Source: Gammaproteobacteria bacterium HGW-Gammaproteobacteria-1
GTDB lineage: Bacteria; Pseudomonadota; Gammaproteobacteria; Thiohalomonadales; Thiohalomonadaceae
Assembly: GCA_002840095.1 (NCBI GenBank)
Contig: PGZL01000007.1
Span: forward strand, 1-64,000
Direction of reading: 5' to 3'
Length of the DNA: 64,000 nt
Positions within the stretch are counted from its first letter, which is position 1. Every line of letters begins with the position of its first letter. Positions 28,241-34,913 of this stretch are shown here, piece after piece. The translations under genes and the position numbers were made by a program. The notes below the pieces were generated by a model. The model made no database searches and was not told where the DNA came from. It saw only the letters and a program-made list of their open reading frames with translations.

Positions 28241-28327
28241 CGCCCTGGCTTGTCCATTTGTACCATCAATGATACGCTTGACCGCACGATTATCAGCATT
28301 AAACACCTGAGTGCAAAGGGTGCCGCC

Positions 28328-28588
28328 ATGAACACGATCACAGCCAATGAACTGAAAACCAAAGGAATAGCCTCTATCGACACGGCACTGAAGGCACAGG
28401 AGGAAGCCATCATTTCTGTCCGCGGCAAGGGCCGCTACGTGGTCATGGACATGGAAACCTACAACCGCCTCCGTGTCTGCGAACTGGAGGCAGCCCTGTA
28501 TCAGGCACGCCGCGAAATCGCCGAAGGCCAGGGAACCGAGGAAAGCGTCGACGCACACATAGCTCGCGTGCAAAATCTGGAACCATGA
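28328..28588 (+). CDS. Type II antitoxin, RelB/Phd-like
   Basis: An 86-aa DNA-binding antitoxin: MNTITANELKTKGIASIDTA is the start of a ribbon-helix-helix or Phd/YefM-like fold, then VRGKGRYVVMDMETYNRL as in RelB/Phd partners. The acidic/helical C-terminus would wrap the toxin. The ATG at 28328 is chosen over upstream in-frame codons because family members begin MNTIT/S. Its stop overlaps the start of the toxin gene (ATGA at 28585). Such pairs normally repress their own promoter. It marks the left edge of the accessory island. Confidence 0.85.
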   Translation: MNTITANELKTKGIASIDTALKAQEEAIISVRGKGRYVVMDMETYNRLRVCELEAALYQARREIAEGQGTEESVDAHIARVQNLEP

Positions 28589-28866
28589 ACTACCGGATTA
28601 CCTACACACCGGGCTACAACCGGCGCGCCGCGCGCTTCCTGAAGAAACACCCCGATCTGCTGCCGCAGTACGAAAAAACCCTGAAACTGCTCGAACTCGA
28701 CCCCTTCCACCCCTCCCTGCGCCTGCATCGTCTGCAAGGCCGACTGGAACAACTCCACTCCATCTCGATCAACATCAGCTATCGCATTACGCTGGAATTC
28801 ATTCTGGAGGAAAAGCACATCATTCCTGTCAACGTCGGAAGCCATGACGACGTGTATCGGGAATGA
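28585..28866 (+). CDS. Type II toxin, RelE/ParE superfamily (YafQ-like)
   Basis: A 93-aa toxin of the RelE/ParE fold: FLKKHPDLLPQYEKTLKLLE, then DPFHPSLRLHRLQGRLEQLH and the strand block ISINISYRITLEFILEEKHI and PVNVGSHDDVY. The HRL-GRL and YRI patterns, with a terminal SHDDVYRE, are those of mRNA-interferase relatives. It overlaps the antitoxin gene by 4 bp. Whether it cuts mRNA on the ribosome or targets gyrase cannot be told from sequence. Confidence 0.87.
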   Translation: MNYRITYTPGYNRRAARFLKKHPDLLPQYEKTLKLLELDPFHPSLRLHRLQGRLEQLHSISINISYRITLEFILEEKHIIPVNVGSHDDVYRE

Positions 28867-29086
28867 TTTGGCCAGGGCAGCGGCTGCTGTTTGAGACGCC
28901 CCCACCAGACCGGCGCCTGCAATAACTGAACGGACGAGTCTGCGTAAGCTCCTCGACACGTGATAAATCCTTTACAACCAGCGTAACCTCGTGTCCTCGT
29001 CCCAGCAATTCTTCCACAACGGGCGCAAACCGCCCCAGATGACCAAGGTCCTCACCCAATTCCCACACACACAGGATTTTGCTCAT
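28864..29086 (-). pseudogene. Glycosyltransferase remnant, truncated and frameshifted
   Basis: From the ATG at 29086 the minus strand encodes MSKILCVWELGEDLGHLGRF, then APVVEELLGRGHEVTLVVKD and LSRVEEL, the N-terminal Rossmann fold of a UDP-sugar glycosyltransferase. Near 28945 a one-base shift moves the homologous reading into another frame, where SSVQLLQAPVWWGRLKQQPL continues the same family. After that nothing remains: the gene (normally about 400 aa) is cut off at the end of the toxin gene. The insertion of the toxin-antitoxin pair or a deletion probably removed the rest. Confidence 0.75.
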
Positions 29087-29212
29087 AAGATATAGCGACG
29101 ACTTAGTGAAGGAACCAAGCAACAAAGCGATTTATAAAGACTGCACGAGCCAAGAACGGAAATTTCAGCACCGACACTGAAACATGCGCCACTCACATCA
29201 GAGTCATCCCTG

Positions 29213-30157
29213 TCATGGCTCCCTGACCTGCTCGTCATGGGGAAGATCTCTGAACAGGTTCCGGTAGGTATCGAATTCAAGGTTGCGATCGTTTGGGGTT
29301 GGGTTGAAGTAATAATCGAACGCAACACCGGCGACGCCCCCCTTCTTGGTTTTGAAAAAGAAACGAATATCCCGGTATACCTTCGCATAGTTAGCCTCGA
29401 CCAACGCGCCATCCTTATCTGCGGAAGCCCTTAACCTAAGGACGTAATGTTTTCTTGGTGAAGGTCGGTGTTTCTCATCAACATCCCCCGACATTGATAA
29501 GCCCCACCACTGTTCACCGTTAGTATATCCATCCAAGGGAGCTTGGTGAGGAACGAGTAACTTACTCGCTTTGTCCACCTTATCTGATATATCCAAGATT
29601 CCATCCAAAGCGCTCGAGAACCTCATACGTAACTCGCCTTTAGCGTCCCAAAAACTATTGGCATACCCCTCATACCGGAATTGAACATCTGCCCGAAACC
29701 CCTGCCCATGCGGAGCCACCCAATCCGCCTTCTCCAAATCGAACCCAACCCATTGCTCCGCCACCGGTATCTCGCCCGAGTAGCGCTTCGCGTACAGCGG
29801 AATAGGATTGCGTTTCTCCTTAAGAACGACAGTGACTTTTCGATCGCGGAAGTACTCCTTGCCATCGACAATTTCTTTAGTATTAACTTCCGATCCACTC
29901 GGATAGTAACCAATCTTTCGCGCGACGATCCCAACGGGAAAGAAAGAATTCCCAGCGACTGCCGCAGTCCCATTACTATCGGTTCGTGCATTATCCGTAC
30001 TGAAATCAGTGACACCGAGGAATGTCCCTATCACCTCCGCTCCCTCTACCCGCTTTGAAAATTCGTCCACCACAATAACTTCGACCCCAACCCTAGGGGC
30101 AAACAGTCCATAGGATGGCGTACTAAATACAACCAGAAACATCAGCACCCAGCGCAT
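29213..30157 (-). CDS. Unknown secreted protein, tandem paralogue 1
   Basis: A 314-aa protein with a signal peptide (RWVLMFLVVFSTPSYG), then a beta-sandwich-like segment resembling carboxypeptidase regulatory domains (VEVIVVDEFSKRVEGAEVIG, TDSNGTAAVAG). A central block (KEKRNPIPLYAKRYSGEIPV) is nearly identical in the next gene, and the C-terminus includes YYFNPTPNDRNLEFD. A polar, tryptophan-bearing C-terminal domain of unknown type follows the central block. Base composition is visibly less GC-rich than the surroundings. The ATG at 30157 is chosen to give the signal peptide. Function unknown. Confidence 0.75.
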   Translation of the reverse strand: MRWVLMFLVVFSTPSYGLFAPRVGVEVIVVDEFSKRVEGAEVIGTFLGVTDFSTDNARTDSNGTAAVAGNSFFPVGIVARKIGYYPSGSEVNTKEIVDGKEYFRDRKVTVVLKEKRNPIPLYAKRYSGEIPVAEQWVGFDLEKADWVAPHGQGFRADVQFRYEGYANSFWDAKGELRMRFSSALDGILDISDKVDKASKLLVPHQAPLDGYTNGEQWWGLSMSGDVDEKHRPSPRKHYVLRLRASADKDGALVEANYAKVYRDIRFFFKTKKGGVAGVAFDYYFNPTPNDRNLEFDTYRNLFRDLPHDEQVREP

Positions 30158-30344
30158 TCTTCCAGCCCCCAAATTGGACAATTTTCGCCACATGAGCGAC
30201 ATCTAGGCAGTGCCATCCCCCGGGAATCGATATGCCGACACTCCCTCGCCATCGTTCCTGGTAGTGTCGACCGTTTGTCCGGCCACCAACCATAAAGGAG
30301 CGAATAGGTGACGGATTCATTTTCCAGCATGAGGGGAATCCTCA
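30158..30344. other. Gap between the two paralogues, diverged copy of an upstream region
   Basis: The sequence before paralogue 1 resembles, base by base in short patches, the sequence before paralogue 2 (for example the ttcgcc-acatg and gtccggccaccaaccat / gtggccaccgaccat patches). This indicates that the duplication included the upstream region. No gene is recognised in it. Confidence 0.4.
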
Positions 30345-31283
30345 TCACGGCTCCCATACCCGATCGTCATGGGGAAGGTCTCTGAACAGATTCCTATAGG
30401 CATCAAACTCTAGGTTGCGGTCGTTGGGGGTGGGGTTGAAGTAGTATGTAAACTGAAGGCGGGACATCCCTCCCTGCCGCCCTCTCAGGGAAAAGAATAC
30501 ATCTCCATATAATTTCCCGTAGTTTGCTGCTTCGATCTCATGCCGTGCATCAATTACGGTTCGTAGCCGTAGAAAATAGAATCTATTTCTGTTTGGCCGA
30601 CCTTCCACCTCTTTTCTTATGGCTTCGCGCCATACCTTTTCCTCGCTGACATAACCTTCAATGTGTGCTAGATGCGGTACTTTCAATTCGTTTTGCGCCG
30701 AGATATCTGATATCTCAGCGGCACCGTCATGCTCGCTAAACCTGAGCCTCAACTCCCCTTGCCCGCTATCGAAACTGTCAATCCCGCCTTGAAACCAAAA
30801 ATGAATATCTGACCTCCCACCCTTCCCATATGGAGCCACCCAATCCGCCTTCTCCAAATCGAACCCAATCCATTGCTCCGCCACCGGAATCTCGCCCGAG
30901 TAGCGCTTCGCGTAGAGCGGGATCGGATTGCGCTTTTCTTTCAGAACCAGTGAAACCGCCTGGTCGCGAATCTGCACCTCACCATCGACCGTCTCCCTAG
31001 TATTCACACTGGAGGCACTTGCGTAATATCCTTCCAAAACAGCGGAGACATCCACGGGAAAGATCGAGCGCCCAGAAACGGTCGCACGACCAGATGAATT
31101 GGTCCGAGTTCGGTCTACGCTCCCATCGTCGCTCCTTCCTCCGAGGAAGTTCCCTCTCACCATGGCATTAGCCAAGGGTGCACCAGCTTCGTCCAGTACC
31201 GTCACATCAACACGGACATATGGCAAGATAACACCGTGCGCATGGAACGAAATCGCACACAGCACGATTAGCAGCCAACGCAT
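30345..31283 (-). CDS. Unknown secreted protein, tandem paralogue 2
   Basis: A 312-aa protein, same plan as paralogue 1: signal peptide RWLLIVLCAISFHAHG, beta-sandwich-like region (VRVDVTVLDEAGAPLANAMV, TNSSGRATVSG), the shared block KEKRNPIPLYAKRYSGEIPV followed by EQWIGFDLEKADWVAP, and the C-terminal TYYFNPTPNDRNLEFDAYRN. Overall protein similarity to paralogue 1 is moderate, but the central DNA is nearly identical. The frame is open upstream into a transposase remnant; ATG 31283 is preferred because it gives the signal peptide. Function unknown. Confidence 0.75.
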   Translation of the reverse strand: MRWLLIVLCAISFHAHGVILPYVRVDVTVLDEAGAPLANAMVRGNFLGGRSDDGSVDRTRTNSSGRATVSGRSIFPVDVSAVLEGYYASASSVNTRETVDGEVQIRDQAVSLVLKEKRNPIPLYAKRYSGEIPVAEQWIGFDLEKADWVAPYGKGGRSDIHFWFQGGIDSFDSGQGELRLRFSEHDGAAEISDISAQNELKVPHLAHIEGYVSEEKVWREAIRKEVEGRPNRNRFYFLRLRTVIDARHEIEAANYGKLYGDVFFSLRGRQGGMSRLQFTYYFNPTPNDRNLEFDAYRNLFRDLPHDDRVWEP

Positions 31284-31451
31284 TCGCCCAGCCCTCCGAG
31301 GCCAATCAGTTTCTTCCACATGGGGAGCGCAGACAGGAGTGAAACAACACGGAAGTCGTTGTGCAACCACTTCGTTATCGAAGGGCCCACTTACGCGTTC
31401 GTGTGGCCACCGACCATCGTTCATACAAGCCAGCCCACGCCGCTGATTTTT

Positions 31452-34046: not shown

Positions 34047-34330
34047 GCCGCCGCCGCCCGCCACCGAAAAATGCCGTCGCCCTGCACTACGACGGCAAGG
34101 GCGCACCGCGCATCAGCGCCAAGGGCCGCGGCATCGTGGCCGAGGAAATCATCGCCCTGGCCGAGGCACACGGCATACCGCTGCACGAAGACAGTGAACT
34201 GGTGACGCTGCTGGCGCAGCTGGAACTGAACGAGGAAATACCGCGCGAGCTATACCTCGCGGTGGCCGAGGTGATCGCCTTTGCCTACATGATTACCGAG
34301 AAGTTTCCGCCGGGGTGGGGAAAGAAATAG
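34043..34330 (+). CDS. FlhB C-terminal-domain-like protein (FhlB type)
   Basis: A 95-aa protein resembling the cytoplasmic C-terminal domain of FlhB/YscU: AVALHYDGKGAPRISAKGRG corresponds to AVAL-Y at the autocleavage region, then IPLHEDSELVTLLAQLELNE and IPRELYLAVAEVIAFAYMI. The NPTH cleavage motif and all membrane helices are missing. It overlaps fliK (ATGA at 34043), consistent with FliK-FlhB interaction. Stand-alone FlhB-like proteins of this type are known beside fliK in several Gram-negatives; their role is not fixed. Its stop TAG merges into the first GTTTCGG unit of the repeat that follows. Confidence 0.85.
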   Translation: MSRRRPPPKNAVALHYDGKGAPRISAKGRGIVAEEIIALAEAHGIPLHEDSELVTLLAQLELNEEIPRELYLAVAEVIAFAYMITEKFPPGWGKK

Positions 34331-34527
34331 TTTCGGGTTTCGGGTTTCGGGTTTCGGGTTTCGGGTTTCGGGTTTCGGGTTTCGGGTTTCGGGTTTCGGG
34401 TTTCGGGTTTCGAGTTTCGAGTTTCGAGTTTCGAGTTTCGAGTTTCGAGTTTCGAGTTTCGAGTTTCGAGTTTCGAGTTTCGGCAAGAGTGTGTCGTGGT
34501 TTTTCGAAACTCCAAACCCGAAACTAT
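34330..34527. repeat. Class C element: 22-unit GTTTCGG/GTTTCGA array with core and short inverted arm
   Basis: Positions 34330-34482 hold eleven GTTTCGG then ten GTTTCGA heptads and one last GTTTCGG. The core CGGCAAGAGTGTGTCGTGG follows at 34481-34499, then a short right arm (tttcgaaactccaaacccgaaact). Read on the minus strand the right arm is GTTTCGG-GTTTGGA-GTTTCGA, the same unit order from outside in. Both ends read TAGTTTCGGG, and in both the TAG is the stop codon of the flanking gene (34328-34330 plus strand; 34524-34526 minus strand). Confidence 0.97.
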
Positions 34528-34913
34528 TCCTTCCCCAGCCGGTGCATCATCGCCACCAATTCGGCTTCGCCGCGGGACAGGCCGCACACTTCGATGAGGT
34601 CGTCCACCGCCGCGCCTTTGTGCGCCATCTTGATGGCCTGGGTGTAGGAACGTGCTTCCGGATCTTCCTGGTTGAGCTGGTCCTGGCGCAGTCCCAGCGC
34701 CTCCTGCCTTTCGGCCACCTGGCGCAGGCGCCGCTCCATCTGATTGACTCGGTCACCCATGCCCACCGCGGCATTGCACAGGGCGCGCAAATCGTTCTGC
34801 AACGTACGCAGCACGGCGTCCTGCCGCGCGGCGGTGCGGCGTTGCGCAGTGATGCCCGCCACGGCAATCAGTGCCACCAGCGCAAGCGCCGCCATCAGCC
34901 ACAGGTTATCCAT
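34524..34913 (-). CDS. DUF2802 protein, flagellar-cluster associated
   Basis: A 129-aa protein: one N-terminal transmembrane helix (LWLMAALALVALIAVAGITA), a long coiled coil (residues about 30-80), and the DUF2802 C-terminal segment AIKMAHKGAAVDDLIEVCGL plus SRGEAELVAMMHRLG, a helix-turn-helix-like fold. A protein of this family is found downstream of cheW in Pseudomonas flagellar clusters, and the same holds here. Function unknown. Its stop codon is part of the class C repeat. Confidence 0.85.
   Translation of the reverse strand: MDNLWLMAALALVALIAVAGITAQRRTAARQDAVLRTLQNDLRALCNAAVGMGDRVNQMERRLRQVAERQEALGLRQDQLNQEDPEARSYTQAIKMAHKGAAVDDLIEVCGLSRGEAELVAMMHRLGKE

What the first reader, a model, noticed from the sequence alone, without database searches (positions are those of the whole stretch)
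29213..31283. Tandem secreted paralogues with a near-identical central patch
The two proteins differ widely over most of their length, but about 100 bp of DNA (29712-29811 and 30832-30931) differ at only about five positions. This uneven similarity is expected from gene conversion or from a strongly constrained site. The family is not recognised, it has a signal peptide and a carboxypeptidase-regulatory-like domain, and it lies in a low-GC accessory island next to a toxin-antitoxin pair.
Basis: seen in the sequence. Interest (0 to 1): 0.5.

Follow-up and report, generated by a model that had tools for sequence, protein, structure and literature searches.

The report
Orphan toxin-immunity genes sharing recombination patch
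Two neighbouring bacterial genes look like leftover antidotes to a large exported lipase-like toxin, and the short stretch they share almost letter for letter is where such antidote genes appear to recombine and swap halves.

Summary
The two 100-bp stretches differ at 5 positions. Silent change between the copies is 0.18 per site in the patch against 0.73 and 0.87 in the parts on either side; identical silent codons are 26/30 in the patch and 46/127 outside (Fisher p 4e-7). It is not protein constraint alone: against another genus the patch is silently saturated (pS 0.72-0.80), and in four distant homologues it is only 27-39% identical. So gene conversion or recombination is supported. A relative shows the same patch as a crossover point: G384_2 joins one paralogue's N half to another's C half, the best single switch lying at nt 381-400, inside the patch (337-435) (trees).

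Related loci give the context. In several relatives the gene sits directly behind a giant alpha/beta-hydrolase on a trunk that elsewhere carries RHS repeats and a pretoxin HINT domain. Tandem copies alternate with 3' hydrolase fragments. The window keeps two intact copies and a decayed hydrolase tail; no trunk was found in its genome. Best reading: orphan immunity genes of a polymorphic toxin, shuffled like staphylococcal esaG. Toxicity and neutralisation are inferred, not shown.

The parts
29213..30157 (-). Gene A: 314-aa exported protein (likely orphan immunity protein), stop codon included
   Evidence: Open frame; start moved to 30157 by alignment with its relatives; one other copy in the own genome, gene B
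30345..31283 (-). Gene B: 312-aa exported paralogue (likely orphan immunity protein), stop codon included
   Evidence: Open frame; 52% identical to A; predicted beta-sandwich N domain, about residues 22-117, C domain unresolved
29712..29811 (-). Near-identical central patch in gene A
   Evidence: 5 of 100 positions differ from 30832-30931; pS 0.18
30832..30931 (-). Near-identical central patch in gene B
   Evidence: As above
29213..29302 (-). Conserved 3' block of gene A
   Evidence: 86% aa, 82% nt identical to the same block of B, but pS 0.63
30345..30434 (-). Conserved 3' block of gene B
   Evidence: As above
31283..31381 (-). Decayed 3' remnant of the giant alpha/beta-hydrolase directly upstream of gene B
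   Evidence: tblastn 59% over 32 aa, E 4e-8 in the window; 33 aa, E 1.9e-5 in the whole genome, the only match there to the 993-aa G384 query
30158..30202 (-). Possible shorter hydrolase-tail remnant upstream of gene A
   Evidence: Resemblance by eye to the tails aligned; not found by tblastn at E 0.05
28250..28866 (+). Neighbouring Phd/YefM-like and RelE/YafQ-like toxin-antitoxin pair (two ORFs), probably unrelated to A and B
   Evidence: Pfam matches below cut-off: PF02604 E 1.5e-5, PF15738 E 6.9e-4, PF05015 E 1.1e-3

Best explanation
A and B are two orphan immunity genes left from a polymorphic-toxin locus. In the intact system a giant exported protein carries a lipase-like alpha/beta-hydrolase at its C-terminus, and the next gene encodes an exported partner with a beta-sandwich N domain and a variable C domain that guards the producer's own envelope against it. 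New toxin/immunity units displace old ones: the old toxin survives as a 3' fragment and decays, while the immunity gene is kept. The tandem immunity genes then exchange sequence through a shared central block at the junction of the N and C domains. That keeps the block alike within a genome (the patch seen here) and makes new N/C combinations. Shown here: gene order, hydrolase fragments and remnants, no trunk or full hydrolase found in the own genome, silent-site likeness of the patch within the genome, and one clean N/C chimera whose switch lies in the patch. Inferred: that the hydrolase is toxic, that A and B neutralise it, that the site is the periplasm and that the targets are other bacteria.
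For: Patch: pS 0.18 against 0.73 and 0.87; 26/30 against 46/127 identical silent codons; the DNA tree of the patch puts W_A with W_B at 100/100, while W_A's C part is closer to G379_2 (60% aa) than to W_B (38%). Chimera: G384_2 matches G379_2 in the N part (97% nt) and G379_3 in the C part (82% aa) and tail (99% nt). Of the sites that tell the two parents apart, up to nt 381 161 of 167 match G379_2; from nt 472 on 166 of 215 match G379_3 (21 match G379_2, 28 neither); the best single switch is at nt 381-400 and the patch is nt 337-435. The AU test rejects the opposite groupings in the N and C parts, p 1.5e-39 and 2.6e-5. Setting: of 11 homologous genes, 4 lie directly behind an open hydrolase frame (G154, G335, Formivibrio, G384_2; the last two cut by contig ends), 3 behind a hydrolase fragment (G379_1, G379_2, G384_1), 2 behind a shorter remnant (G379_3, W_B), and for 2 none was found (W_A, G256). 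The hydrolase passes Pfam's cut-offs narrowly in G335 (Abhydrolase_6 27.4 against 26.3 bits, DUF900 20.7 against 20.5). The same trunk continues into RHS repeats and PT-HINT in G256 (E 1.6e-117 and 2.6e-18) and into RHS repeats in G240 (E 5.5e-101). No trunk and no hydrolase beyond the 33-aa remnant was found in the own genome, which is in 70 contigs. Partner genes stay open beside broken hydrolase pieces, with dN/dS about 0.1 between relatives (dN 0.11, dS 0.92 for the G379_3/G384_2 C part), which argues that they are kept for their own sake. Precedents: PMC9484751 (abstract and one results section read) and PMC5361080 (passages read).
Against: No member matches a Pfam immunity family (11 of 11 scanned at E 0.01). 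There are no toxicity or neutralisation data. The hydrolase could be a nutrient enzyme with a helper protein. That W_A and W_B are each other's nearest kin is not firmly rejected outside the patch: N part p 0.34, C part p 0.056; the claim that their C types are older than the genus split rests on identities and one weak branch (61/62). Pairs in G379 are less alike in the patch (15-19 of 27-29 shared codons identical). Toxin fragment and immunity type are not tightly coupled: the fragments before G379_1 and G384_1 are 77-95% identical, the immunity genes behind them only 35% (N) and 41% (C). Gene G256 has no hydrolase neighbour. Only one clean chimera was found.
Confidence: 0.74

Rival explanations
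1. The patch is a strongly constrained binding site; no recombination is needed.
For: Patch residues are 79-85% conserved against the sister genus; four residues invariant in 11 members lie in it; it is somewhat better kept than the N and C parts in distant members.
Against: Silent sites in the patch are saturated between genera but nearly identical within the window genome; in four distant homologues only 9-13 of 32-33 patch residues are kept.
Confidence: 0.06
2. The downstream protein is a dedicated chaperone, foldase or substrate-binding subunit of an exported lipase used for nutrition, not an antidote.
For: Overlapping genes and N-terminal export signals on both fit a lipase and its helper; the N domain resembles accessory domains such as that of SusC and of carboxypeptidase M (on the confident part of a model whose mean pLDDT is 46.6).
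Against: Open partner genes persist beside fragmentary hydrolases (3 in G379, 2 in the window) and in a genome where no full hydrolase was found; the trunk otherwise carries RHS/PT-HINT toxin architecture.
Confidence: 0.15
3. A and B are a recent tandem duplication whose flanks have diverged fast under diversifying selection, leaving the patch slow.
For: A and B as nearest kin is not rejected in the N part (p 0.34) and only borderline in the C part (p 0.056).
Against: Silent sites outside the patch are near or at saturation (pS 0.73-0.87), which positive selection on the protein alone does not produce.
Confidence: 0.05

Closest known systems
EsaG (and TipC) immunity-gene arrays of the type VII secretion system, Staphylococcus and Streptococcus (PMC9484751; abstract and one results section read)
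   Same: Tandem non-identical immunity paralogues; conserved blocks inside the gene where recombination breakpoints fall; variable regions with different trees.
   Different: No relation of the proteins is claimed; bearers here are Gram-negative, the genes have N-terminal export signals (by eye), the putative toxin is lipase-like instead of a nuclease, and old toxin 3' fragments lie between the copies.
Orphan immunity arrays of Vibrio cholerae T6SS clusters (PMC5361080; passages read)
   Same: Old immunity genes kept while new effector/immunity units displace old effectors.
   Different: Delivery there is by T6SS; here the trunk begins with a hydrophobic export-like signal (by eye). T6SS genes were not searched for.
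Rhs / pretoxin-HINT polymorphic toxins and AB-hydrolase toxin domains (Zhang et al. 2012, PMC3482391; passages read)
   Same: Common trunk with exchangeable C-terminal domains; alpha/beta-hydrolase toxin families with HSxG motifs and immunity partners are listed there.
   Different: No RHS match in the hydrolase-bearing proteins of G335 and G384 C28 (those of G154, Formivibrio and G384 C55 were not scanned with Pfam), and no member of the partner family matches a Pfam immunity family.

Membership tests
Immunity proteins of polymorphic toxins | Gene directly downstream of a toxin gene | tested here: met
   4 of 11 behind an open hydrolase frame, 3 of 11 behind a fragment, 2 of 11 behind a remnant, 2 of 11 none found. 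That the hydrolase is a toxin is inferred.
Immunity proteins of polymorphic toxins | Match to a known immunity family profile | tested here: not met
   Pfam scan of 11 of 11 members: only CarboxypepD_reg (6), Big_1 (5), DUF7382 (2) at E 0.01; NCBIfam none at E 0.1 for A and B. That Pfam holds many immunity families is recalled.
Immunity proteins of polymorphic toxins | Neutralises the cognate toxin | not testable with these tools
   Needs an expression or binding assay
Orphan immunity arrays with displaced toxin ends | Tandem immunity copies separated by 3' toxin fragments | tested here: met
   G379 L014 11172-10183 and 9174-8167, remnant 12714-12452; G384 L015 2966-1959; window 31378-31283
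EsaG-type recombining immunity genes | Breakpoints in conserved blocks, incongruent trees of variable parts | tested here: met
   G384_2 chimera; one clean case only
Pfam CarboxypepD_reg (PF13620) | Score above the curated cut-off | tested here: not met
   24.3 bits (B) and 13.2 (A) against 32.3; a fold search of a low-confidence model with a confident N domain finds beta-sandwich domains such as CnaB, the SusC NTE domain and carboxypeptidase M
Rhs/pretoxin-HINT toxins | RHS repeats and HINT on the shared trunk | tested here: inconclusive
   Met in G256 and, for RHS, in G240; not found in the hydrolase-bearing proteins of G335 and G384 C28
T6SS lipase effectors (Tle) | T6SS delivery parts or a known Tle domain | tested here: inconclusive
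   Pfam gives only Abhydrolase_6 and DUF900 for G335 at E 0.01, the same below cut-off plus chance-level Lipase and DUF676 hits for G384; T6SS genes were not searched for

The most novel reading that the evidence does not exclude
An undescribed polymorphic-toxin export system of Gram-negative bacteria: PPIC-type isomerases, a giant Ig-rich protein and an exported trunk protein form one gene cluster, and the trunk carries either RHS/HINT cargo or alpha/beta-hydrolases. Its antidotes are two-domain envelope proteins that acquire new specificity by swapping N and C domains at a built-in recombination block, and genomes that have lost the weapon keep the shuffled antidotes as a defence.
Probability: 0.35. 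Interest if true: 0.72.

Novelty: new variant of a known kind. Interest (0 to 1): 0.52.

Why it matters
If right, it gives an unnamed family of exported proteins a job (antidotes to a lipase-like toxin), points to a delivery gene cluster for which my searches showed no description, and shows in a Gram-negative family the block-mediated shuffling of immunity genes known from staphylococcal esaG. It would also explain why one short stretch of two otherwise unlike genes is almost identical.

Tried and rejected
Pure protein constraint: rejected by silent sites and distant homologues. Mobile carriage: gene B had no match in the plasmid or phage records, the G335 hydrolase domain none in the plasmids, the Formivibrio hydrolase domain none in the viral contigs. 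A hydrolase-domain search over 398 phylum genomes gave two weak partial hits (E 2e-5 and 2e-4), not used. Structure: three sequences in the alignment, mean pLDDT 46.6, N domain usable, C domain not. PDB profile searches: for the partner family 8qox_B over the N domain (E 2.4e-4) and three hits at E 0.056-0.11 taken as chance or fold-level; for the hydrolase one weak lipase match, 1bu8 (E 0.049). A decayed Y1 transposase upstream of gene B seemed likely by eye, but Pfam and tblastn gave no support, so it is not claimed. Two short N-domain hits of the G335 family search (E 9.7e-5 and 8.4e-4) were left out of the member counts. A short fragment of the family in G384 C108 and a 25-aa hit in L013 were left out of the 11-member alignment. 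Literature: seven searches ran; in their listings (titles and starts of abstracts; for, 15 of 205 papers) none was about this family or cluster, and (polymorphic toxin, immunity protein, carboxypeptidase regulatory-like) gave 0 papers. The library lacks most subscription journals, so this is no proof of absence. Fetched but not examined: L035 and L059.

Full report
Observation. Genes A (29213-30157, minus) and B (30345-31283, minus) are the only two members found in the window's genome. They are 52% identical. By codon, the patch (33 codons) has 97% identical residues, 95% identical bases and pS 0.18; the N part has pS 0.73, the C part 0.87, the tail 0.63. Of the 157 codons that encode the same residue in both genes (Met and Trp left out), 26 of 30 in the patch and 46 of 127 outside are the same codon; the best 30-codon window was reached in 3 of 100,000 shuffles.

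Constraint or conversion. Seven members from three genomes of one bacterial family were compared: A, B, three tandem copies in G379 and two in G384. Against the five from the other genus, the patch of A or B keeps 79-85% of residues, but silent sites are saturated (pS 0.72-0.80). In four distant members the patch keeps 9-13 of 32-33 residues of A or B (27-39%), against 20-30% in the N part, 18-31% in the C part and 38-61% in the tail (the tail is cut wider there than). Protein constraint therefore explains part of the shared residues, not the shared silent sites. A constraint on the DNA itself would be expected to show between genera, and does not. The patch tree groups A with B at 100/100. 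A's C part groups with G379_2 only weakly (61/62), and holding A and B together there gives p 0.056 (0.34 in the N part), so that part of the argument is suggestive only.

The patch as a crossover point. G384_2 is a chimera. Its N part is 97% identical in DNA to G379_2; its C part is 82% identical in protein, and its tail 99% in DNA, to G379_3. Of the sites that tell these two apart, up to nt 381 161 of 167 match G379_2 (2 match G379_3); between 382 and 471, 7 and 12 of 23; from 472 on 21 and 166 of 215. The best single switch is at nt 381-400; the counterpart of the patch is nt 337-435 (one search had marked a slightly wider stretch). Holding G384_2 with the other parent is rejected in both parts (p 1.5e-39 and 2.6e-5). 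This is one event; I did not find a second equally clean one.

What lies around the relatives. In G154, G335, the Formivibrio contig L012 and G384 the gene begins at or within a few bases of the stop of a hydrolase frame (1-nt overlap in G335, 4-nt in G154 and G384, 2-nt gap in Formivibrio). The hydrolase frames are 1611 and 1596 residues in G154 and G335, with hydrophobic N-termini; those of G384 and Formivibrio are cut by contig ends. All four share HSLGN. Pfam gives Abhydrolase_6 at 27.4 bits (cut-off 26.3) and DUF900 at 20.7 (cut-off 20.5) for G335, below cut-off for G384. In G379 and G384 the tandem copies alternate with hydrolase 3' fragments that start at or a little before HSLGN, some with stops or a frame break. 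In front of B is a remnant of 32-33 residues (E 4e-8), the only trace of the hydrolase found in the whole genome. In front of A a resemblance can be seen by eye but was not found by tblastn. For G256 no hydrolase neighbour was found.

The trunk. The part before the hydrolase domain also occurs in G384 contig C55 (77% identical over query residues 1-394), there with a different end that looks by eye like another alpha/beta-hydrolase and is followed by a different partner of 354 residues with a carboxypeptidase-regulatory-like match below cut-off. In G256 it continues into RHS repeats (E 1.6e-117), a pretoxin HINT domain (E 2.6e-18) and a further C-terminal stretch; in G240 into RHS repeats (E 5.5e-101). 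Before the trunk, in the same orientation, lie PPIC-type isomerases (Pfam above cut-off in all four genomes tested: two in G335, one each in G154, G256 and G384) and a giant protein: Ig-like by Pfam in G384 and related by sequence among G335, G384, G154 and G256. In G384 the contig with the trunk start ends in the sequence with which C28 and C55 begin, as expected if one trunk sequence has two continuations. In the window's genome (70 contigs) neither trunk nor Ig-rich protein was found.

Mechanism. The best-supported account is a polymorphic-toxin locus whose antidote genes outlive their toxins. Shown: order, fragments, remnants, shared trunk with RHS/HINT cargo, open partner genes with low dN/dS (0.11 against 0.92 for the G379_3/G384_2 C part), likeness of the patch within the genome, one chimera. 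Inferred: toxicity of the hydrolase, neutralisation, bacterial targets, and the periplasm as the site. The last rests on N-terminal signals read by eye in the sequences; G335 and G256 carry a lipobox-like LNAC or LSAC, a motif that I recall and did not test. The N domain is predicted as a beta-sandwich like CnaB and carboxypeptidase regulatory domains; the C domain is unresolved, and the model as a whole is of low confidence.

Spread. Members were found in 4 of 369 class genomes, 3 of 56 relatives and 3 of 20 family genomes, the own genome counted each time. In the families of G335, G256 and G154 (40, 21 and 41 genomes) the only full member each time was the centre genome itself. Of 58 candidate stretches in the genome contigs two encode a relative, one of them only 25 residues. 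A patchy spread suits a horizontally moving accessory locus; the low GC of the region agrees, but no mobile carrier was found.

Against the reading. No known immunity family matches. Toxin fragment and antidote type are not tightly linked. Copies in G379 are less alike in the patch than A and B. Nothing biochemical was tested. A lipase with a helper protein remains possible and is given 0.15.

Known kinds. The recombination pattern is that described for esaG and tipC (PMC9484751: abstract and one results section read). Retention of old immunity genes is that described for Vibrio cholerae (PMC5361080: passages read). AB-hydrolase toxins in polymorphic systems are in PMC3482391 (passages read). 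What seems new is the antidote family, the hydrolase on this trunk, and the cluster with isomerases and Ig-rich protein; seven literature searches showed no paper on them in their listings.

Noticed in passing
L034 862-14770; L041 1-7278; L058 4853-13073; L042 with L017: A gene cluster of PPIC-type isomerases, a giant Ig-rich protein and an exported trunk protein, seen in G256, G335, G384 and G154; may be an undescribed polymorphic-toxin export system.
   Followed up: partly
L033 3-4375: A second hydrolase-like end on the same trunk with a different 354-aa partner; by eye, partial relatives of that partner at L015 2-619 and L016 5692-6153.
   Followed up: partly
L013 5001-5075: A 25-residue stretch 84% identical to the 3' block of gene B lies outside the ORFs of 90 aa or more listed there, in an Opitutia MAG; possibly a remnant.
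   Followed up: no
window 34250-34590: Short tandem repeat that reads as TRNPKPE-like units in the listed ORFs, probably a repeat array and not a gene.
   Followed up: no
window 28829-29125 (-): Short ORF that looks by eye like the start of a glycosyltransferase, cut short; Pfam gives only a weak NAD-binding hit.
   Followed up: partly
L018 5211-6056; L019 5338-5757: IS200-like (Y1) transposase genes lie near the homologues in G335 and G256 (Y1_Tnp E 3e-12 and, below cut-off, 2e-3).
   Followed up: partly
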